Below are positions 96 through 61,355 of a stretch of 64,000 bases of DNA, piece after piece (within the stretch, counting starts at the first letter, position 1; every line of letters starts with the position of its first letter). A program made the position numbers and the translations under genes. This stretch comes from Desulfocicer vacuolatum DSM 3385 (lineage in GTDB: Bacteria; Desulfobacterota; Desulfobacteria; Desulfobacterales; Desulfobacteraceae): the NCBI RefSeq assembly GCF_900176365.1, contig NZ_FWXY01000003.1, positions 1 to 64,000 on the forward strand, written 5' to 3'. Below the pieces are notes generated by a model. The model did not search any database and was not told where the DNA came from. It saw nothing but the letters and a program-made list of their open reading frames with translations.

Positions 96-175
96 AACCC
101 ACACGGACGAACCGTATTCCGGCCTCGACCTGCCCACAACGAAGCTTAAAATACGCCCTTGATTTGCGGACTATC
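96..175 (-). repeat. Type A double-hairpin repeat (degenerate)
   Basis: Reverse-oriented copy of the window-wide element. It keeps the core CCCACAACGAAGCTTAAAATAC and the TTTGCGGA end of the left hairpin, but the TATATGAAA terminus is eroded. It lies in the 621-bp stretch left of aroC, where no gene is seen. A separate dyad TTATGACT/AGTCATAA at 181-200 follows it and has no T-run, so it is not called a terminator. Confidence 0.7.
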
Positions 176-293: not shown

Positions 294-483
294 TATATAC
301 AATGCAGCCTCCAAGGCAACCTCAGCAGAGCCGCTCCCCCGACGGGCAATAGGAACCGGACAATTGAGCTGTCTACAGTTCCGGTCCGGGACCATTGCCC
401 GTCGGGGGGGCGGCGGTATAATACCATTTAGCTCCGCGTCTACGACCCTATATTTGTTGTGTCCCACAGGAAATGCCCGCCGA
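294..483 (+). repeat. Type B composite repeat, copy 1
   Basis: About 190 bp containing a long inverted repeat: GACGGGCAAT (347-356) pairs with ATTGCCCGTC further right, extended by CCCCC/GGGGG and CCGGAC/GTCCGG. This is followed by a conserved tail with GGCTCCGCGTCTACGACC and TTTGTTGTG. Near-identical copies lie at 5242, 41162 and (reversed) 61062. The element is fused directly to a type A unit. The long reading frame across it is a by-product of the repeat. Confidence 0.85.
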
Positions 484-571
484 TAGCAATACTCCGTAAA
501 ACAAGGGTGTAGTTCAAGCTTTGTTGTGGGCAAAGCCGGATCAAAATACGGTCTGCCCGTGGCAGTTATAA
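484..571 (+). repeat. Type A double-hairpin repeat
   Basis: Joined to the right end of the type B copy. The left TATATGAAA is replaced by ATAGCAA, while the remainder (ACTCCG...CAAGCTTTGTTGTGGGC...GCCCGTGGCAGTTATA) matches the family. Confidence 0.8.
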
Positions 572-5241: not shown

Positions 5242-5424
5242 TTATATGAAAAGGTCGCCTTCAAGTTCACCTAAGGCAGAGCCCCCCCGGGGGGGTAGTA
5301 GGAATCGGCCAATCGAGCTATCTACAGTTCCGGCCGGGACCATTACCCCTCGGGGGGGCGGCATAATACCATTTGGCTCCGCGTCTACGACCCTATATTC
5401 GTTGTGTTCGGCAGGACATGCCCG
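5242..5424 (+). repeat. Type B composite repeat, copy 2
   Basis: Second copy of the GC-rich inverted-repeat element. It starts TTATATGAAAAGG and ends CAGGACATGCCCG, immediately joined to a type A unit as in copies 1 and 3. The left stem is partly decayed, with several bases of GACGGGCAAT altered. Confidence 0.8.
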
Positions 5425-5513
5425 TTATATGAAACACTCCACAAATCAGGGGGGATTTCAAGCTTCGTTGTGGGCGGGAGAGGTCAAAATACGGGTGGCC
5501 TGTGGCGGTTATA
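5425..5513 (+). repeat. Type A double-hairpin repeat overlapping a stop codon
   Basis: It begins TTATATGAAACACTCC and ends GGCGGTTATAA. Its terminal TTA is the reverse complement of the TAA stop of the neighbouring minus-strand gene at 5509. Confidence 0.85.
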
Positions 5514-6796: not shown

Positions 6797-6884
6797 TATA
6801 ACTGCCATGGGCAAATCCGGTTCCGCCCACAGCGAAGCATAAAAAAGCCGTCACTGTGAGTACCCAGTATCTGCTTTTTCATAT
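6797..6884 (-). repeat. Type C repeat (alternative left hairpin)
   Basis: Read in reverse it runs TATATGAAAAAGCAGATA...GCTTTTTTATGC and then GCTGTGGGCGGAACCGG...GCCCATGGCAGTTATA. The frame is that of the type A element, but the left hairpin is replaced by an ATGAAAAAGC/GCTTTTTTAT stem around ACTGGGTACTCAC. It shares this cassette with the copy at 41059. Confidence 0.65.
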
Positions 6885-6973
6885 AAACCGCCACGGGCGG
6901 ACCGCATTCTGACCTCGCTCCGCCCACAACAAAGTTAGAAATACTCCCCTGGTTAACGGAGTATTTCATATAA
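6881..6973 (-). repeat. Type A double-hairpin repeat
   Basis: Well-conserved reverse copy, with ACCGCCACGGGCGGACC, CCGCCCACAACAAAG and GGAGTATTTCATATA. It abuts the type C unit on its left. Together they fill most of the 339-bp gap between the CNNM gene and aapP. Confidence 0.85.
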
Positions 6974-11526: not shown

Positions 11527-11606
11527 ACTGCCATGGGCAGTTTTCGTATTACACCTATGGTTAGCCACAACTTAAAAATGTTTCTTGTTTTACCTGGATT
11601 TTCATA
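11527..11606 (-). repeat. Degenerate double-hairpin repeat
   Basis: Recognisable by AACTGCCATGGGCAG at one end, AGCCACAACTTAAAAATG in the middle and TTTTCATATA at the other, with the left hairpin region unlike types A to C. It is the first of four elements in the 435-bp gap between aapJ and lpxB; no gene is seen in that gap. Confidence 0.5.
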
Positions 11607-11696
11607 TAACCGCCACGGGCGGACCGCATTCTGACCTCGCTCCGCCCACAACAAAGCTTGAAATACACATCTGGTTTGCGGAGTATTTCATATAAA
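11604..11696 (-). repeat. Type A double-hairpin repeat
   Basis: Well-conserved reverse copy almost identical to 6881-6973 (ACCGCATTCTGACCTCGC and CCGCCCACAACAAAGC are shared), suggesting a recent common source. Confidence 0.85.
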
Positions 11697-11932: not shown

Positions 11933-13196
11933 TACAATTGCAATGTTGTTTTACCATATCAAAGGCAAGGGCCGCCACCCGCTGGGAAGCCCCTTTCCCC
12001 CCCAGCAAAGCGGGAAGCATCTCCAGACGCTTTTCCATGGCACCGCGTACAGAGTCATTCAAAATAGATATGACCTTCTCACTGATTTTTTCCGGAGTGG
12101 CATCCCCCTGGAGCAGCTCGGGCATGACTTGTTGACCAAAAATAATATTGGCAAGTCCAACATACTCTATTTTGACGAACAATCGGGCAAGAAAATAACT
12201 CATCCAGGACATTTTATATACGATAATAGTGGGCACCCGGAAAAGAGCCGCCTCCAGAGAAACTGTCCCCGATGCCGCAATGACAACATGGGCCGAGGAA
12301 AGTATGGCAGAGACATTTCCGTGGAAAACCTGGAACAGATCCTTGGTATTTATATGAAAATTCCGGCAACCCGGACAGGTTTTCAAGTTTTGTTGCGGGC
12401 AAGCCAAAGAGCAATGGGAGATCTGACCGTGGCTGTTATAGTGGTTTAAAATGGAATTAAACCGATCCATATCAACATTGGTGGCACAGGAAATTAAAAA
12501 TCGAACCCCGGGTATACGCTGTTTTATTTTCAAGGAAGCATTAAGAAGGATTTCAAGAAGCGCATCAATTTCGCTGTTTCTCGATCCGGGCAATAGCGCT
12601 ATGGTAAAAACCTCATCCCCGGACTTCAAAGCAGGGAGAAGTCCGGGATCATGGCAATCCAGAAGGGGATGCCCCACAAAGGTGTGGGGAATTTTCCATT
12701 TCCGATAAAGGGGAGCTTCAAAGGGGAAAATCAATGCCACATGGTCCACGTATTTTTTTATCTTTTTAAGACGGGACATTTTCCAGGCCCATACCTTGGG
12801 GGAGATATAGTAAAGAACAGGTATCCCCATGGGCCTGGCTGCGGCAGCCATTTTCAAATTAAATCCCGGATAATCAATGAGAATCAGCAAATCCGGTGAA
12901 CATCGCGCCAGCTGATCTTTCATGCCCCGAAACACCCTGGCAATGGTCTGCATCTTCAGCAGCACCTCGGTGACGCCCATGACAGACAGATCCCGAATAT
13001 GAAACAGCAATTTCATACCGGCCCGGGCCATGGTATCCCCGCCAATACCGAGAATCTCTGTTTTTGGCGCCCTTTGTTTCAAAGCCTTGACAAGGTTGGC
13101 CCCATGGAGATCCCCCGAAGGTTCTCCGGCAATAATCATGATTTTTCCAGGTTGGCCCTGCCCATGGGAAAGGTAATTTCCGGGGATATTCATCAT
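11928..13196 (-). CDS. lpxB: Lipid-A-disaccharide synthase with in-frame repeat insertion
   Basis: Condenses UDP-2,3-diacylglucosamine with lipid X to make the lipid A disaccharide at the inner membrane. The 422-aa product shows IIAGEPSGDLHGANL near residue 20, DYPGFNLKMA, YYISPKVWAW, LLPGSRNSEI and the C-terminal AASGTVSLEAALF. Family members are usually around 380 aa. The excess includes residues 253-282, encoded by an exactly 90-bp copy of the intergenic repeat (12440-12351). That segment is Cys/His-rich and splits a loop ahead of the SGT motif. The stop codon also lies in a repeat. It follows lpxI directly. The reading frame is otherwise intact, so it is probably active. Confidence 0.93.
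   Translation of the reverse strand: MMNIPGNYLSHGQGQPGKIMIIAGEPSGDLHGANLVKALKQRAPKTEILGIGGDTMARAGMKLLFHIRDLSVMGVTEVLLKMQTIARVFRGMKDQLARCSPDLLILIDYPGFNLKMAAAARPMGIPVLYYISPKVWAWKMSRLKKIKKYVDHVALIFPFEAPLYRKWKIPHTFVGHPLLDCHDPGLLPALKSGDEVFTIALLPGSRNSEIDALLEILLNASLKIKQRIPGVRFLISCATNVDMDRFNSILNHYNSHGQISHCSLACPQQNLKTCPGCRNFHINTKDLFQVFHGNVSAILSSAHVVIAASGTVSLEAALFRVPTIIVYKMSWMSYFLARLFVKIEYVGLANIIFGQQVMPELLQGDATPEKISEKVISILNDSVRGAMEKRLEMLPALLGGKGASQRVAALAFDMVKQHCNCK
12351..12440 (+). repeat. Repeat copy inserted in frame within lpxB
   Basis: TATATGAAAATTCCGGCAAC...TTTTCAAGTTTTGTTGCGGGC...GACCGTGGCTGTTATA aligns end to end with the type A element, though diverged. It is 90 bp, begins and ends on codon boundaries of the minus-strand gene, and codes for lpxB residues 253-282 (starting YNSHGQ) without a stop. 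Confidence 0.8.
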
Positions 13197-16404: not shown

Positions 16405-16495
16405 ATATAACCGCCACGGGCAGGCCCTATTCTGATCCGGCTCTGCCCACAACAAAGCTTGAAATACACCTCTGATTTGAGGAGTATTTCATATA
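16405..16495 (-). repeat. Type A double-hairpin repeat
   Basis: Reverse copy filling most of the 148-bp gap between bamA and skp, so it would be transcribed within the operon as two hairpins. Confidence 0.85.
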
Positions 16496-19174: not shown

Positions 19175-19263
19175 TATATGAAATACTCCGTAAATGAGGG
19201 GTGTATTTCAAGCTTTGTTGTGGGCAGAACCGGGGCAGAATAAGGTCTGCTCATGGCAGTTAT
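19175..19263 (+). repeat. Type A repeat, first of a tandem
   Basis: Starts TATATGAAATACTCCGTAAA and ends ATGGCAGTTATAT, sharing TATAT with the next unit. It lies just upstream of bamA. Confidence 0.85.
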
Positions 19264-19351
19264 ATGAAATACCCCGCAAACCCGGGGAATATTTCTACCT
19301 TTGTTGTGGGCGGAACGAGGCCAGAATACGGTCCGCCCGTGGCGGTTTATA
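19261..19351 (+). repeat. Type A repeat, second of a tandem
   Basis: Directly follows the preceding unit with a shared TATAT junction. It retains the perfect GGGCGGA/TCCGCCC right stem and is followed by a third, truncated TATATGAAATACTCCG (19349-19364). Together they fill the 240-bp gap between lolD and bamA. Confidence 0.85.
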
Positions 19352-25411: not shown

Positions 25412-25501
25412 TATATGAAATACTCCGCAAACCGGGGATGTATTTCAAGCTTTGTTGTGGGCAGAGCCGGATCAAAATACGGCCCGCCCGTGGCAGTTAT
25501 A
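25412..25501 (+). repeat. Type A double-hairpin repeat
   Basis: Canonical copy in the 427-bp gap between divergent pilC and the DHH/CCA gene. The rest of the gap holds a MITE-end fragment (25601-25635) and a 38-codon frame (25694-25810) ending right at the start of the next gene. Confidence 0.85.
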
Positions 25502-25600
25502 AAATAATTATTCCACAGGGTGAATGTTCGATTTGGTACTGCAGCAGTATGACCAACGCCCCACATCTGCCTAATCGGGACTGCACCGCATATTAATAAC

Positions 25601-25635
25601 TTAACTTTCGGTGTTCGCATTTCGTGGTGGGGTAA
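25601..25635 (+). repeat. Left-end fragment of the 37.8-kb MITE
   Basis: TTAACTTTCGGTGTTCGCAT and TTCGTGGTGGGGTA match the first ~34 bp of the MITE at 37757. No right end is nearby, so this is a relic or a solo end. Confidence 0.6.
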
Positions 25636-25810
25636 GGATCTCCTTGGTTTTCCCGATTATAAATGATAAGAAGCACACAATCATGGAGTATTCATGGGCA
25701 TTGGCGTCAAGCCCCACTCCAGATCAGCCACATTGGGAACCGACGCCAACAAAATGGATCTTAAAATTACAATTAAATTTCCCTTTGTCATTGCCAGGAG
25801 CATGGACTGA

Positions 25811-35866: not shown

Positions 35867-35957
35867 TATAAGAAACTCCCCGCAAATATGGGAAAATTTT
35901 CTATCTTTAGTTGTGGGCAGAAATGGATCAGAATAAGATTTGCCCGTGGCAGTTATA
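35867..35957 (+). repeat. Type A double-hairpin repeat
   Basis: Diverged copy (TATAAGAAACTCCCC...TAGTTGTGGGCAG...GCCCGTGGCAGTTATATA) placed 25 bp before the aminotransferase start, on its leader side. Confidence 0.75.
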
Positions 35958-37752: not shown

Positions 37753-37947
37753 TTTACTCAACTTTCGGTGTTCGCATTTCGTGGTAGGGTCAGGCTTTCG
37801 TTATTAACATTATCGAGACTTTTTTCGTTGGCAAAGGCCTTGGTCGATAACATCAATAACAAAAGCCTGACCCGTCGGCACACTGAGCCCATCGGTACAT
37901 TTAAAAATGCCGGCTTTGAAATGAAGGCCGAAAGTTGAGTTGATTTA
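37749..37947. mobile_element. MITE with terminal inverted repeats and target duplication
   Basis: Left TIR CTCAACTTTCGG (37757-37768) and right TIR CCGAAAGTTGAG (37928-37939) are perfect. They are flanked by the direct repeat TTGATTTA (37749-37756 and 37940-37947). Inside, GGGTCAGGCTTTCGTTATTA (37787 on) pairs with a near-complementary arm ending at 37873: about 26 of 30 positions match around a 27-nt loop. There is no coding capacity. The insertion abuts the kdsD stop (37750-37752). Confidence 0.8.
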
Positions 37948-40953: not shown

Positions 40954-40972
40954 CATTCCTTCCATATTTTTT

Positions 40973-41063
40973 TATAAGAAATACTCCGCAAACCAAGGGT
41001 GTATTTCAAGCTTTGTTGTGGGCGGAACCGGATCAGAATACGGTCTGCCCTTGGCAGTTATAT
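40973..41063 (+). repeat. Type A double-hairpin repeat
   Basis: Canonical copy starting 19 bp upstream of the lipoprotein start and ending TTGGCAGTTATATG, where a type C unit begins. Confidence 0.85.
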
Positions 41064-41167
41064 GAAAAAGTGGGTGCTCGGTACTGGGTATTAGGTTCTG
41101 GGTGCTCACAGCAACTACTTTTTCATTATTCGTTGTGGCTGGTACTTACAGCCATGTGGGTTATATG
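41059..41167 (+). repeat. Type C repeat (alternative left hairpin)
   Basis: TATATGAAAAAGT (41062 on) pairs through ATGAAAAAGT with ACTTTTTCAT, around imperfect GGGTGCTCGGTACTGGGTAT-like tandem motifs. TCGTTGTGGCTGG...GCCATGTGGGTTATATG follows, the family's right hairpin. The same cassette occurs at 6797-6884. Confidence 0.65.
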
Positions 41168-41350
41168 AAAAGGCAGCCTCCAAGGCAACCTCAGCAGAGC
41201 CGCCCCCCCCGATGGGTAATAGGAACCGGACAATTGAGCTGTCTACAGTTCCGGTCCGGGCCCATTGCCCATCGGGGGGCGGCGGTATAATACCATTTGG
41301 CTCCGCGTCTACGACCCTATATTTGTTGTGTCCCACAGGACATGCCCGTT
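41162..41350 (+). repeat. Type B composite repeat, copy 3
   Basis: Best-preserved forward copy: GGCAGCCTCCAAGGCAACC, the 20-bp-class inverted repeat around GATGGGTAAT/ATTGCCCATC with compensating changes relative to other copies, GGCTCCGCGTCTACGACC, then TTTGTTGTGTCCCAC and GCCCGTTTATATG. Confidence 0.85.
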
Positions 41351-41439
41351 TATATGAAATACTTCGCAGATCAGGGGTGTATTTCAAGCTTTTTTGTGGG
41401 CAGGACTGGATCAAAATAAGATCCGCCCGTGACAGCTAT
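41351..41439 (+). repeat. Type A double-hairpin repeat touching the miaA stop
   Basis: Follows type B directly, so A-C-B-A stand in series from 40973 to 41439. Its last base is the first base of the miaA stop complement (41439-41441). Confidence 0.8.
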
Positions 41440-42640: not shown

Positions 42641-42776
42641 TTCCCATATTCACAGACCTGGAAGAACAAAGTGGCCTCTCAATTGCATTCACAAAATGAG
42701 GATATTTTTAAAAACTCCTCCGGGATTATGAATAAAACAGAAAACACAGACGAACTTTCTGAAATAATATAGAAAA

Positions 42777-42859
42777 GCCACAGGCAAGGTTTATTTTGAT
42801 CCAGTTTTACCCACAACAAAGTTAGAAATACTCCCCGGGGTTGCGGAGTATTTCATATA
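42777..42859 (-). repeat. Type A double-hairpin repeat
   Basis: Reverse copy in the 622-bp region left of hdrL, with an eroded right end. The rest of the region (42860-43262) holds the hdrL promoter and a long leader in which no gene or known riboswitch is recognised. Confidence 0.7.
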
Positions 42860-54154: not shown

Positions 54155-54878
54155 GAATAAAACATCGGACAACATCCAGGTTGGTACGCAAAAATTGTTC
54201 CGTATTGTCCTGAAGTATGATTTTTCCTTGGTCCAGCATGGCCACCTGCTGGGCAATATCAAAAATTTCGGGTATTTCATGGCTGACCACCAGCGCTGTA
54301 AACCCGAATTGTGCCTGATATTCTTTGATCATGCCATGGACCCCCTGCTTTCGAACGGGGTCCAGCCCGGTGGTGGGCTCATCAAACAGCACCACCTCGG
54401 GATCGGTGATCAACGCCCGGGCCAAGGCCACCCTTTTTCGCATACCCCCGGAAAGCTGGGCCGGATATTTCTCTTCAGTGCCGGTGATGTCCAGCTGATT
54501 CACACGGGTGAGCACCCGTTCCTTGATCTCTTCCCTGGAAAGGGTTGATTTTTCCACAATGGGCAAAGCAATGTTTTCAAACACCGTCATGGCATCAAAA
54601 AGGGCATTATCCTGGAACATATAACTCACCCTTTTTTTAAATTTCCTCCGGGCCGTCCTGTCCATTTGTGCCATGTCCCGGCCATCATAAAAAATGCTTC
54701 CAGAATCCTGCTCTTCCAGTCCGATGATATGTTTAAGCAATACACTTTTACCACTGCCGCTCTTACCGATGACAGCAGTGATCTGCCCCCTGTGAATGGA
54801 AAGGTTCAGCCCATCCATGACCCGGATATTACCAAATCTCTTTTTGACATTCACAAATTCAATCAGAGGTGTTGTCAT
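54123..54878 (-). CDS. mlaF: Phospholipid ABC transporter ATPase MlaF
   Basis: A 251-aa ATPase with Walker A GKSGSGKSVLL near residue 36, the signature LSGGMRKR and Walker B VVLFDEPTTGLDPV, then VVSHEIPEIF. GGMRKR rather than GGQQQR is typical of the Mla/MCE class. AAGGAGG precedes the start, 18 bp after mlaE. Confidence 0.94.
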   Translation of the reverse strand: MTTPLIEFVNVKKRFGNIRVMDGLNLSIHRGQITAVIGKSGSGKSVLLKHIIGLEEQDSGSIFYDGRDMAQMDRTARRKFKKRVSYMFQDNALFDAMTVFENIALPIVEKSTLSREEIKERVLTRVNQLDITGTEEKYPAQLSGGMRKRVALARALITDPEVVLFDEPTTGLDPVRKQGVHGMIKEYQAQFGFTALVVSHEIPEIFDIAQQVAMLDQGKIILQDNTEQFLRTNLDVVRCFIHGKEKTGEKI

Positions 54879-54896
54879 AAGGCCCCCTCCTTGTTT

Positions 54897-55688
54897 TTAA
54901 AGCAATAGCCAGGTAATAAGATAATCAAAAAAAAGAATCAGCACAGAGGAGGTCACAACGGCATTGGTGGTGGAGGAACTGACCCCTTTGGCACCATACC
55001 CTCCCCCTTCCTGGAGATGGGTAAAAAATCCCCGGGAACAGCACACTGTGGTCACCACCAGAGAAAACACAAGGGATTTCACAAAACCGCCGGTGACATC
55101 TGCCATTATCACACTTTCTGTGACACGGTAAAGGTAAATGCCGGGGTTAATTCCCAACATAAGGGAACCGGTGATATAGCCCCCGAAGATCCCCACCACA
55201 TCAAACAATGCCGTGAGAAGAGGAAAACTGATAACAGCAGCGGCGATGCGCGGACTGAACAAAAAACGCACAGGATCAATGTCCATGGTTTCCAGGGCAT
55301 CAATCTGCTGGGATATGCGCATGACACCCAGTTCAGCTGCCATGGAGGAACCGGCCCGGGCTGTCACCATAATGGCGGTGAGCACAGGCCCCAGTTCCCG
55401 GATCAACGTCAGGGCCACAGCAGAGCCCAACATCCCTTCGGACCCGAATTTCACCAGGGTGTAGTATCCTTGGAGCCCCAGAACCATCCCCGTGAATATG
55501 CCCGTGAGGATGATCACCCCCATGGACTTCATACCGATGAACCAGGTATGCTCCACCACCTTATATATTTGCCAGGGAAGGGTGAATATGTGAAAAACAC
55601 CCATGAGCATGAACAGAAAAGTCCTACCGATTCCCCCCACAATGCCCAGGGTTTTATGTCCCAAATATTCAATATATTCAGCTATCAT
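54897..55688 (-). CDS. mlaE: Phospholipid ABC transporter permease MlaE
   Basis: A 263-aa inner-membrane permease with five or six hydrophobic segments. The family block is ELGPVLTAIMVTARAGSSMAAELGVMRISQQIDALETM near residue 100. First gene of the mla operon. Confidence 0.93.
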   Translation of the reverse strand: MIAEYIEYLGHKTLGIVGGIGRTFLFMLMGVFHIFTLPWQIYKVVEHTWFIGMKSMGVIILTGIFTGMVLGLQGYYTLVKFGSEGMLGSAVALTLIRELGPVLTAIMVTARAGSSMAAELGVMRISQQIDALETMDIDPVRFLFSPRIAAAVISFPLLTALFDVVGIFGGYITGSLMLGINPGIYLYRVTESVIMADVTGGFVKSLVFSLVVTTVCCSRGFFTHLQEGGGYGAKGVSSSTTNAVVTSSVLILFFDYLITWLLL

Positions 55689-56118: not shown

Positions 56119-56206
56119 TATATGAAATACTCCGCAAACCCGGGGCGTATTTCAGGCTTTGTTATGGGCGGAGCCGGGTCAGAATAAAATCCGCCCGTGG
56201 CAATTG
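56119..56206 (+). repeat. Type A double-hairpin repeat
   Basis: Canonical copy ending just 12 bp before the -35 of the next operon. The terminal GTTATAT is changed to ATTGTTG. Confidence 0.8.
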
Positions 56207-59800: not shown

Positions 59801-61030
59801 CTTTCCCATGTCAATCCCAAATTGGATGACAACATGTCGGACAAAACCATTGTCATGCCCAACTGGGATCCCATCACCGGTAAATTTCTGGCAGCCGTAC
59901 TCCGGGGGGAGGGATACAACGCCATTCTCATGGAGGAAACCACAGATACCATTAAAAAAAGCCTTAAAACCAACACCGGCCAATGTATTCCCTTAAATGC
60001 CATTGCCGCAGGCTATGCCCAGACCATAAAGAACCATGACCTGGACCCCGGGCGCACCGTATTGTGGATGAGCAAATCCGACATTGCCTGCAATATCAAA
60101 CTGTACCCCCATCACATCAAAACCATATTAACGGACATGGGGGCTGATTTTGGTAAGGCAGGGGTGTATAAAGGCGAGCTTTCCTTTAGTGATATTTCCA
60201 TGAAAGCAGCCTTGAATGCCTATTTTGCTTATATGTTCGGTGGATTAATCCGAAGTCTTGGATGCACCATTCGACCCTATGAAATCCAAAAAGGAAAGAC
60301 CGATGCCGCCATTGCCCGGGCCGTGGACATACTGACCAAGGTCTTTGAAGACAACCAATCCAAAGAAAAAGCCTTGGCCCATGCCCTTGAACCCTTTAAG
60401 CACATCAACACCCATGTGGAACCGGGACGTCCCAAGGTGGGTATTTTCGGGGATTTCTATGTCCGGGACAATGATGTCATGAGCCATGACTTGATTCATT
60501 TTATTGAAGCCCATGGCGGTGAAGTGGTGACCACCCCCTACTACCGATTTGCAAAAATGATTGCCAGTTCTTATTTTAGAAAATGGTTTAAGGAAGGAAA
60601 ATATAAAAGTCTTATTTCCGGCAAAACCCTGCTCACGGCCATGAATCTCATGGAAAGCAAATATTATCGATATTTTGAACCTCTGTTCAACGCCCCGGAT
60701 ACCGCCTATGATGATCCCTTTGATAAAATTCTGGCCCAATACGGTATTTTACCGGAACACACCGGAGAATCCATGGATAACATATTAAAAATCCATTACA
60801 CCTTAAAGGCCCACCCGGATCTGGCTTTATTTGTCCAGACAAGCCCGGCCTTCTGCTGTCCCGGCCTTGTCACCGAAGCCATGGCTTCATCCATTGAAAA
60901 ACACAGCGGGGTTCCCATGGTGAGCATCACCTATGACGGGCTGGGGGGCAATCCCAACCGAGTTATTATTCCATTTTTGAAATACGCCGGAAAAAATGGA
61001 AGCCCAGAGGGTCAAAGGGTATCAATGTAA
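56810..61030 (+). CDS. Double-ASKHA 2-hydroxyacyl-CoA dehydratase activase fusion
   Basis: A 1406-aa protein. Two BadF/HgdC-type ATPase modules (GIDIGSVSVSVVGI near 9, GMDVGSTSTKAVIV near 330) each keep the cysteines that bind a bridging 4Fe-4S (NTSCAAGTGSFL/ATRCAVF and NTVCAAGTGSFI/SDRCTVF). A DUF2229-like segment (CQLCTNHCKL near 610) follows. A long C-terminal HgdB/double-cubane-like region has NTGQCIPLNA and PAFCCPGLVTEAM. Such ATP-driven ferredoxin-fed activases inject low-potential electrons into a partner. Having activator and acceptor-like parts in one chain suggests intramolecular transfer. The substrate is unknown; no acyl-CoA genes are adjacent. Confidence 0.88.
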   Translation: MEYAFNILGIDIGSVSVSVVGIDNKGNIFLKKAVAHQGDVVQGLKTALGSMAVHPFSAIAATAATPDIIKRDAAYDEQVAIIRAAKKRHGAPGAILNVGGEKFSLSLFDPTGRYAGSRNNTSCAAGTGSFLDQQSTRLGLSGPEALSRAAFENTREIPDIATRCAVFAKTDLIHAQQEGFSVPQICDGLCRGLARNIANTLFTEKKIREPIIFCGGVSRNLSVKKHLEQIIEAPLISDENSHLFGALGAALCLADDIQQGIFTPLNSHGYNTMEDMLVKRSQQLQKHFFPQLNLTLSTYPDFSAHTHFVENGVENDIYMDPARMNTCHCFLGMDVGSTSTKAVIVTKEGEVMAGFYTRTASRPVQAVQAIFKSIDAFISTHELTMEIMGCGTTGSGRKLSSAIMGADLVLDEITAHSRAAFELTPEVDTIIEIGGQDAKFTTMKNGVVTSSFMNTVCAAGTGSFIEEQALKLGCPLEDYSRRAESVCSPISSDRCTVFMERDMNHFLSEGYSVDEVLASALHSVRDNYMSKVATQARIGDTVLFQGATAKNRALVAAFEQLLEKPIHVSPYCHLTGALGVALTLKDQPPQKSYFRGFNLWKQSLPVRRETCQLCTNHCKLTIVTIEKETVAFGFLCGRDYNTDHFVPPKNHFHLLRNRKKGVTLPHPTPETSAFTLGIPAALYLVEDLNFWKIFFNYLGIKTITSEKMKSPVTQGRAIATAEFCTPVAALHGHVSYLLEKADQVFLPYYFEQRIPDKKIRRQYCYYTQYMPSVIASLGDIDEKRLISPVVKYLHTAFHTKMELYRALKKIPNAHFSFFDVASAHEKALAWKKGSAQQLKAMMIRQQNRSTDIDVLLVGRPYTILSETLNAGILDIFASMKVNAFFQDMLDMEQHNFDAIEPLLREIHWKHAATILKATLVAARTDNLFPVYITSFKCSPDAFAVGYFKKIMEAHNKPYLVLELDEHDSSVGYETRIEAAVRAFRNHRQTMDSPPPVSLSHVNPKLDDNMSDKTIVMPNWDPITGKFLAAVLRGEGYNAILMEETTDTIKKSLKTNTGQCIPLNAIAAGYAQTIKNHDLDPGRTVLWMSKSDIACNIKLYPHHIKTILTDMGADFGKAGVYKGELSFSDISMKAALNAYFAYMFGGLIRSLGCTIRPYEIQKGKTDAAIARAVDILTKVFEDNQSKEKALAHALEPFKHINTHVEPGRPKVGIFGDFYVRDNDVMSHDLIHFIEAHGGEVVTTPYYRFAKMIASSYFRKWFKEGKYKSLISGKTLLTAMNLMESKYYRYFEPLFNAPDTAYDDPFDKILAQYGILPEHTGESMDNILKIHYTLKAHPDLALFVQTSPAFCCPGLVTEAMASSIEKHSGVPMVSITYDGLGGNPNRVIIPFLKYAGKNGSPEGQRVSM

Positions 61031-61061: not shown

Positions 61062-61266
61062 ATATAACTGGGGCAGACCTTGTTCTGGCCTCGGTCTGCC
61101 CACAACAAATATAGGGTCGTAGACGCGGAGCCAAATGGTATTATACCGCCGCCCCCCCGACGGGCAATGGGCCCGGACCGGAACTGTAGACAGCTCAATT
61201 GTCCGGTTCCTATTGCCCGTCGGGGGGGCGGCTCTGCCTTAGCTTGCCTTGGAGGCTGCATTGTAT
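61062..61266 (-). repeat. Type B composite repeat, copy 4, with intact right hairpin
   Basis: Reverse copy in which the type B cassette is followed by a full constant right hairpin (GTGGGCAGACC...GGTCTGCCC). This shows that type B is the type A frame with its left hairpin exchanged. The GACGGGCAAT/ATTGCCCGTC stem is perfect. Confidence 0.85.
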
Positions 61267-61355
61267 ATAACTGCCATGGGCAAACCATATTCTGGCCTTG
61301 GCTGCCCACAACAAAGCTTGAAAGCCCCCCCCTGATTTGCGGAGTATTTCATATA
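61265..61355 (-). repeat. Type A double-hairpin repeat
   Basis: Joined to type B copy 4 by a shared TATATA. Together they occupy most of the 458-bp gap between convergent genes; the remaining ~130 bp shows nothing recognisable. Confidence 0.85.

What the first reader, a model, noticed from the sequence alone, without database searches (positions are those of the whole stretch)
40973..41439. Modular double-hairpin repeat family with exchangeable left hairpins
Seen: about 20 repeat units lie between operons. The consensus has a left terminus TATATGAAA, a left hairpin, a constant right hairpin (TTGTTGTGGGCGGA...TCCGCCCGTGGC) and the end GTTATAT. The left hairpin comes in at least three unrelated kinds: type A TGAAATAC/GTATTTCA, type B a long GC-rich stem, and type C ATGAAAAAG(T/C)/ACTTTTTCAT around GGTACTGGGT-like motifs. 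At 40973-41439 four units stand in series as A-C-B-A with shared TATAT junctions. Inference: the constant right hairpin may be what is recognised for mobilisation or RNA processing, while the left half is exchanged. This is reminiscent of REP/BIME elements moved by RAYT enzymes, but the cassette swapping is unusual.
Basis: partly seen in the sequence, partly recalled or inferred. Interest (0 to 1): 0.85.

Follow-up and report, generated by a model that had tools for sequence, protein, structure and literature searches.

The report
Swarm of IS110-derived mini-elements
The window's double-hairpin repeats are stripped-down passengers of an RNA-guided IS110-type jumping gene: they keep its two ends, carry interchangeable filler between them, and number around a thousand in this bacterium, which makes them a natural catalogue of what an RNA-guided recombinase needs from its DNA.

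Summary
The repeats are real and modular, but the explanation is not REP/RAYT. At 40973-41438 four units stand A-C-B-A with shared TTATAT joints. The right hairpin is not constant: RA, RB, RC and RD share only a short frame (GTTGTG...GTTAT). In 864 kb of this genome I found 196 right modules (about 1,100 extrapolated) and 20 mosaic left/right pairings among 137 paired units.

The same frame bounds an IS110-family RNA-guided transposon in related genomes. Nine identical 1,763-bp copies in one complete genome begin TTTATATGAAACT, end AGTTTCATCCTTTGTTGTG-TCCGCAGGA-CATGGGAGTTTATAT, and lie in tandem with double-hairpin units. The whole transposase gene sits where the units have their 'left hairpin'. 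The transposon's 3' non-coding end holds a conserved structured RNA with compensatory changes. The window's own genome keeps one decayed remnant of transposase and RNA.

So these are non-autonomous IS110/IS1111-like derivatives, presumably mobilised in trans into T-runs. The 'left hairpin' is the pair of subterminal inverted repeats around replaceable filler. The four RAYT-type genes in this genome have different ends. I found no published IS110-derived MITE. Guide pairing, trans-mobilisation and the cause of module swapping are inferred.

The parts
40973..41061 (+). unit A (LA-RA), first of the series
   Evidence: folds into two hairpins z -2.7
41059..41163 (+). unit C (LC-RC), second of the series
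   Evidence: z -4.35; about 40 relatives in the genome
41162..41353 (+). unit B (LB-RB), third of the series, about 192 bp with a long GC-rich stem
   Evidence: z -5.57; the 40 best genome copies mostly 92-98% identical
41351..41438 (+). unit A (LA-RA), fourth of the series
   Evidence: z -2.4
40967..40979 (+). T-run and TTATAA left boundary of the first unit (putative target, no copy before it)
   Evidence: composition of 47 isolated left ends
294..479 (+). unit B (LB-RB)
488..569 (+). unit A (LA-RA), next to the B unit
102..173 (-). unit A (LA-RA), decayed
5243..5428 (+). unit B (LB-RB)
5426..5512 (+). unit A (LA-RA), in series with the B unit
6798..6885 (-). mosaic unit: left module C with right module A
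6886..6972 (-). unit A, in series with the mosaic unit
11606..11694 (-). unit A (LA-RA)
12351..12439 (+). A-like unit with a diverged left hairpin
16407..16495 (-). unit A (LA-RA)
19175..19263 (+). unit A (LA-RA)
19261..19347 (+). unit A (LA-RA), in series with the one before
25412..25500 (+). unit A (LA-RA)
35867..35956 (+). A-like unit with a diverged left hairpin
42776..42859 (-). unit A (LA-RA), decayed
56119..56205 (+). unit A (LA-RA)
61064..61269 (-). mosaic unit: left module B with right module A
61267..61355 (-). unit A (LA-RA), in series with the mosaic unit

Best explanation
The double-hairpin units are non-autonomous derivatives (MITE-like elements) of an IS110-family RNA-guided transposon of IS1111-like layout: short left end, long right end holding the guide RNA. 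Shown: the transposon and the units have the same two ends. In unit orientation these are a left end TTATATGAAA(n) and, before the right hairpin, the inverted copy (n)TTTCAT, followed by TTYGTTGTG-[short stem-loop]-..GTTTATAT. In the autonomous element the transposase gene, on the opposite strand, and its guide-RNA region lie between the two arms of the inverted repeat. In the units they are replaced by short unrelated sequences, so the arms close a 'left hairpin'. Inferred: a transposase and structured RNA supplied in trans cut out the unit as a circle and insert it 3' of a run of T at a TTATA-like site. Because every unit recreates TTATATGAAA at its left edge, this edge is a target for the next insertion, so units, and the transposon itself, stack head to tail with shared TTATAT joints. 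Anything between the inverted-repeat arms is tolerated, which allows different left modules. In this genome the autonomous partner survives only as a remnant, so the family is probably dormant. How left and right modules were recombined into mosaics is not known.
For: Nine copies of a 1,763-bp IS110-family element in the complete genome G160, with no differences between them, start and end with exactly this frame. They stand singly and in tandem at a 1,763-bp period, and adjoin double-hairpin units with other hairpins. The same hairpin-plus-inverted-repeat leader precedes related IS110 genes in G006, G071, G001 and G103, and the same leader is seen on a contig end of G188. Right-end copies in G057 and G103 end GTTTCATATA and are followed directly by A-runs of different length or by a unit, as are the window units on the same strand. 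The proteins are NF033542 'IS110 family RNA-guided transposase' (E 1e-66 to 1e-69) with PF01548 and PF02371. The 3' non-coding end holds an RNA with 9 of 18 pairs compensated, found with IS110 copies in nine other genomes and as a remnant at G000:C62:25573 beside a decayed transposase fragment. Head-to-tail unit joints: 217 in G000, 185 in G160, 202 in G128, 55 in G001, with 0 in the reversed control of each. Inverted-repeat arms stay complementary while their sequence differs between 17 element types: 42 of 51 positions, shuffle mean 16.8, maximum 30 in 20,000. That ends alone suffice in trans is published for an IS1111-type element, where cargo between the ends moved with transposase and NCR supplied in trans (PMC11187229).
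Against: The window's own assembly has no intact copy of this IS110 clade or its RNA, and the two MAGs G102 and G145 carry over 20 units each with neither found. These could be losses, assembly gaps or mobilisation by an undetected relative. The inner inverted-repeat arm lies about 30 nt from the element's end with a hairpin between, unlike the few bp described for IS1111. No empty site was found, so the exact end and target duplication are unresolved. Guide pairing was not demonstrated.
Confidence: 0.87

Rival explanations
1. The units are independent repeats that merely serve as landing sites for the IS110 element, as REPs do for IS621 and QMITE2 does for Coxiella IS1111. The shared ends would come from insertion into a unit.
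For: IS110 copies do sit at unit edges, and IS1111 inserts into QMITE2 in Coxiella (PMC5896051). IS110 elements often target repeats (PMC11208160).
Against: The hairpin and inverted repeat lie inside the 1,763-bp repeating period and show no differences in nine copies, while adjoining units have other hairpins. Several copies are flanked on one side directly by non-repeat A-runs, so the ends travel with the transposon.
Confidence: 0.07
2. REP/BIME-like repeats moved by a RAYT or IS200/IS605-type single-strand transposase.
For: Hairpins, intergenic position, no terminal inverted repeats, T-rich target; four Y1 genes exist in the genome.
Against: All four Y1 genes have other ends, and none of 30 Y1 loci in the family is enclosed by this frame. 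No strand bias with GC skew: 31 versus 33 where skew is negative, 9 versus 9 where positive, whereas IS200/IS605 insertion is expected to favour the lagging strand.
Confidence: 0.03
3. The units act as RNA (terminator, processing or regulatory hairpins) and are kept by selection.
For: Stable predicted hairpins; intergenic positions.
Against: In the RA stem, mismatches that wobble pairing would rescue on the transcribed strand (22 G-T) are no commoner than those it would not (29 A-C), as expected of decaying DNA. No Rfam match. Upstream T-runs are not terminator hairpins more often than other T-runs. Interiors are unrelated between genomes.
Confidence: 0.03

Closest known systems
IS1111 group of the IS110 family (ISEc11, ISKpn4, ISPa11; seekRNA / bridge RNA)
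   Same: DEDD RNA-guided transposase, long non-coding end downstream of the gene, subterminal inverted repeats, no terminal inverted repeats, same-orientation insertion; cargo between ends moves in trans in published work.
   Different: Here a stem-loop of about 20-45 nt sits between the element's end and one arm of the subterminal repeat; insertion is into T-runs; hundreds of gene-less derivatives exist and stack in series.
MITEs of other IS families (Correia, RUP, ERIC, Chunjie)
   Same: Short, gene-less, intergenic, high copy number, sharing ends with an autonomous element.
   Different: No terminal inverted repeats and no visible target duplication; the interior is exchangeable and the parent is an IS110-type element.
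REP/BIME with RAYT
   Same: Hairpin repeats between genes, often clustered, mosaic.
   Different: Different enzyme, no RAYT with these ends, units always in direct series with shared joints rather than alternating orientation.
BOX elements of Streptococcus
   Same: Modular, mosaic intergenic repeats.
   Different: Modules here are left and right halves inside fixed IS110 ends. Compared from general knowledge only, not tested.
Coxiella QMITE2 / IS1111
   Same: Short repeats physically linked to an IS1111-type element.
   Different: QMITE2 is the target into which IS1111 inserted, with TIRs and direct repeats (PMC5896051); here the units share the transposon's own ends.

Membership tests
IS110 family (autonomous partner) | DEDD (RuvC-like) domain plus C-terminal Transposase_20 domain | tested here: met
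   PF01548 and PF02371 above cut-off; NF033542 E 1.4e-69 and 1e-66
IS110 family (autonomous partner) | No terminal inverted repeats; insertion in one orientation at a specific target | tested here: met
   Ends TTATATGAAA and GTTTATAT; same T/A-run flank in all copies
IS1111 group | Long non-coding region downstream of the gene holding the guide RNA | tested here: met
   About 400 nt downstream versus about 115 upstream in G160; structured RNA with 9 of 18 compensated pairs. Transcription not tested
IS1111 group | Subterminal inverted repeats of 7-17 bp close to both ends | tested here: inconclusive
   ATGAAACT/AGTTTCAT or ATGAAACACT/AGTGTTTCAT found, one arm close to its end, the other about 30 nt inside with a hairpin between
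IS110 family | Guide RNA loops pair with target and donor | not testable with these tools
   The RNA contains invariant CACAACnAA and ATATAAAACT words that match the element's end and A-run flank; pairing in a complex needs an experiment
Non-autonomous derivative (MITE) | Shares both ends with an autonomous element | tested here: met
Non-autonomous derivative (MITE) | Short, no coding gene, multicopy | tested here: met
   About 88-192 bp, 196 right modules in 864 kb
Non-autonomous derivative (MITE) | Terminal inverted repeats with target-site duplication (classical MITE) | tested here: not met
   No TIR; no duplication visible around 47 left and 32 right isolated ends. The parent family lacks TIRs too, so 'non-autonomous IS110 derivative' is the exact term
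REP/RAYT | Y1 transposase gene flanked by the same repeats | tested here: not met

The most novel reading that the evidence does not exclude
The IS110-type machinery here recognises its ends partly by shape: the subterminal inverted repeat only has to be self-complementary beyond ATGAAA, and the end hairpin only has to be a hairpin between GTTGTG and ATG. Hairpin modules can therefore be exchanged freely, perhaps by the recombinase itself, giving a modular combinatorial family of elements moved by an RNA-guided enzyme.
Probability: 0.25. Interest if true: 0.87.

Novelty: new variant of a known kind. Interest (0 to 1): 0.74.

Why it matters
IS110/IS1111 recombinases are being developed as programmable DNA-insertion tools, yet what they need from the donor DNA has been worked out on few elements. 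Here nature supplies hundreds of gene-less donors per genome, in several genera and at least four families, which show directly which end sequences are indispensable, which may vary if pairing is kept, and that the interior is free. I found no earlier report of non-autonomous derivatives of this family in the papers that could be searched. It also shows how an RNA-guided transposon can fill a genome with hundreds of hairpin repeats that a reader would take for REPs.

Tried and rejected
RAYT/Y1 origin: four genes in the genome and 30 loci in the family inspected, none enclosed by the frame. One Y1 locus in G057 (L200) lies next to the frame, but only because a Y1 element sits beside an IS110 right end there. 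IS200-like single-strand insertion: no strand bias. Insertion at intrinsic terminators: upstream hairpins are no stronger than at control T-runs, mean -4.1 versus -3.8 kcal/mol. RNA function: no wobble bias, no Rfam family. Exact 27-base match to the type B core in named genomes found nothing, as did plasmids; a right-end pattern found four named contigs, in a Desulfarculaceae MAG, Desulfamplus and Desulfobacter latus. Automatic type labels left many units as '?'; they were replaced by profile searches. The hand-entered triplets had errors and were redone from sequence, where type E was still parsed one arm too far, which lowers the observed score. The ncRNA motif script failed on the G016 loci.

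Full report
Setting. The window is G000:C37:1-64000 of a 5.04-Mb, 80-contig genome that is the only one held for its genus.

Observation. The A-C-B-A series exists at 40973-41438 with shared TTATAT joints, and the units fold into two hairpins better than shuffled sequence. Genome searches with each type gave 49 (A), 40 (C) and 75 (B, including self-complementary hits) matches, with more candidates left unscored. The frame pattern TTTGTTGTGN{10,38}GTTATA occurs 233 times against 2 for the reversed pattern. In 864 kb of the genome, profile searches found 196 right modules: RA 150, RB 30, RC 13, RD 3. Left modules were LA 97, LB 92, LC 13, LE 10 and LD 3. Scaling gives roughly 1,100 right modules per genome; fragments are included and this is an extrapolation.

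Modularity. Usual pairs are LA-RA 83, LB-RB 24, LC-RC 7 and LD-RD 3. LE occurs with RA (6) and RC (3). Mosaics are LB-RA 8, LB-RC 2 and LC-RA 1, and two of them are in the window, at 6798-6885 and 61064-61269. Thus both halves are exchanged, contrary to the idea of a constant right hairpin. What stays is TTATATGAAA at the left, TTTCA and TTYGTTGTG before the right hairpin, and GTTAT at the end.

Target and decay. Of 47 left ends judged isolated, 45 are preceded by TT, and about three quarters have T at positions -3 and -4. After the right end the only signal is an A at the first position, with no T-run and no visible duplication. The T-runs are not enriched for terminator hairpins, and orientation does not follow GC skew. 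In the RA stem, A-C and G-T mismatches are equally common (29 and 22). The foot pairs GTTGTG/CRTGGC are invariant except for one position that varies between T-G and T-A. Stems thus look like decaying copies, while the flanking words are fixed for another reason.

Not RAYT. The genome has four Y1 genes. Two lie between inverted copies of GGGGTCAGGCTTCGCTTATTG and the other two between related GGGTC-type ends, not the frame. Thirty Y1 loci from relatives show no gene enclosed by the frame.

Distribution. The right-end frame and the left end occur in other genera of the family and in other families, with left interiors that have nothing in common beyond the ATGAAA/TTTCAT closure. Head-to-tail joints of two units (GTTGTGN{5,33}TGN{1,6}TTATATGAAA) number 217 in G000, 55 in G001, 30 in G011, 22 in G033, 185 in G160, 37 in G126, 202 in G128 and 51 in G209. 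The reversed control gave 0 in each of these, and one or two in only nine of the genomes scanned. Arrays of up to nine such joints at about 89-bp spacing occur in G160.

The autonomous partner. Units in G103 lie directly before the start of an IS110-family gene, and the same leader precedes IS110 genes in G006, G071 and G001 and a gene start on a contig end of G188. A protein search found close relatives in 8 of 194 genomes of the order. In the complete genome G160, nine copies of 1,763 bp are identical to each other. Read in the unit's direction they begin TTTATATGAAACTC and end AGTTTCATCCTTTGTTGTG-TCCGCAGGA-CATGGGAGTTTATAT. They occur singly and in tandem at a 1,763-bp period, and their neighbours are double-hairpin units with other hairpins and interiors. 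The transposase gene, on the opposite strand, lies between ATGAAACT and AGTTTCAT, exactly where the units have their left hairpin. RE copies in G057 and G103, identical or nearly so, end in GTTTCATATA and continue into A-runs of different length or into a unit. This matches the T-runs before the window's units, read on the other strand. The protein belongs to the IS110 family RNA-guided transposases.

The RNA. The roughly 400 nt downstream of the G160 gene hold a block conserved across genera: an outer stem that covaries (GGCCGG/CCGGCC to GGTCGG/CCGACC), an internal loop with invariant CACAACnAA on one side and ACnACGnATATAAAACT on the other, and an inner hairpin. Nine of 18 pairs show compensatory change. 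A model of it finds one or more copies in G006, G001, G057 (10), G043, G016 (9), G011, G103 (5), G160 (11) and G071, and one degraded match in the window's genome at C62:25573-25657, E 4e-5. That match lies beside an 86-residue stretch of decayed transposase, 60% identical. A long downstream non-coding region with a guide RNA is the mark of the IS1111 group (PMC11208160; PMC11187229). The invariant loop words equal words at the element's own end (CACAACAAA) and at the end-plus-flank (CATATAAAA), which suggests guide segments; this is inference.

Why the left hairpin can be anything. Across 17 element types from several genomes, including four autonomous IS110 elements, the three bases after GAAA are complementary to the three before TTTC at 42 of 51 positions, against a shuffled mean of 16.8 and maximum of 30 in 20,000 shuffles. 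The types were chosen by hand and are not all independent. The arms are therefore subterminal inverted repeats whose pairing, not sequence, is kept. Published work shows that an IS1111-type transposase and its RNA supplied in trans move unrelated cargo between the ends (PMC11187229). This is precisely what a gene-less unit would need.

Mechanism proposed. Transposase and RNA act in trans, excise a unit as a circle, and insert it after a T-run at TTATA. The new left edge TTATATGAAA is again a target, so units stack in one direction with shared joints (inferred). In the window's genome the partner has decayed, which fits the spread of divergence among copies (type A roughly 83-87% to one query; type B mostly 92-97%). 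Which process joined left modules to foreign right modules is unknown; short-homology recombination at TTTCAnnTTYGTTG, or the recombinase itself, are both possible.

Novelty. Searches for IS110 or IS1111 with MITE or non-autonomous elements, and a 2024 review of prokaryotic MITEs, gave no IS110-derived MITE. In Coxiella QMITE2 the repeat is the target of IS1111, not its derivative. The library lacks most subscription journals, so absence is not proof. I class it as a new variant of a known kind: non-autonomous derivatives, but of an RNA-guided family, with exchangeable modules and unusual end anatomy.

Noticed in passing
G000:C63:45116-45445, 54686-55015, 60100-60429 and C32:118929-119255 (L031-L034): Four Y1 (RAYT-type) transposase genes lie between inverted copies of GGGGTCAGGCTTCG-like or related GGGTC sequences, a second repeat system in this genome.
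   Followed up: partly
window 25599-25645 and 37756-37802: A 47-bp repeat (ACTCAACTTTCGGTGTTCGCATTTCGTGGT...) at 87% identity; the same kind of sequence (GAAAGTTGAGT ends) adjoins units elsewhere (L003, L049, L068, L084). It looks like another short mobile element that shares TATA-like joints with these units.
   Followed up: no
L157 (G103), about 110-870 in the orientation: An unrelated transposase-like ORF (DELWSYLKNKSQQLWVFIALESTTKFWIGFELGSRT...) begins with the same leader and MTKP start as the IS110 gene of L225, apparently a fusion of two transposons.
   Followed up: no
G000:C63:82599-83030 (L237); also L238, L240: A second IS110 type (345 aa in G000) whose upstream region carries GATAATCATATAAAG, shared with copies in G188 and G103; different ends from the family described here.
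   Followed up: no
L062, L063, L087, L091: Some joints continue GTTTAT-TAGAAAATAAAACTTC, a further left-end variant with an AT-rich hairpin that was not classified.
   Followed up: no
G145 loci L215, L218, L219, L223: Left interiors contain GTAGAGACAAGGCATGCCTTGTCTCTAC-type palindromes, apparently other repeats nested between the inverted-repeat arms.
   Followed up: no
L106, L105, L108, L251, L263, L268: Many left interiors consist of imperfect 6-8-base microrepeats (GTTGTGAG, CCTAACACCTGACACC, GCTAACA); their origin is unexplained.
   Followed up: no
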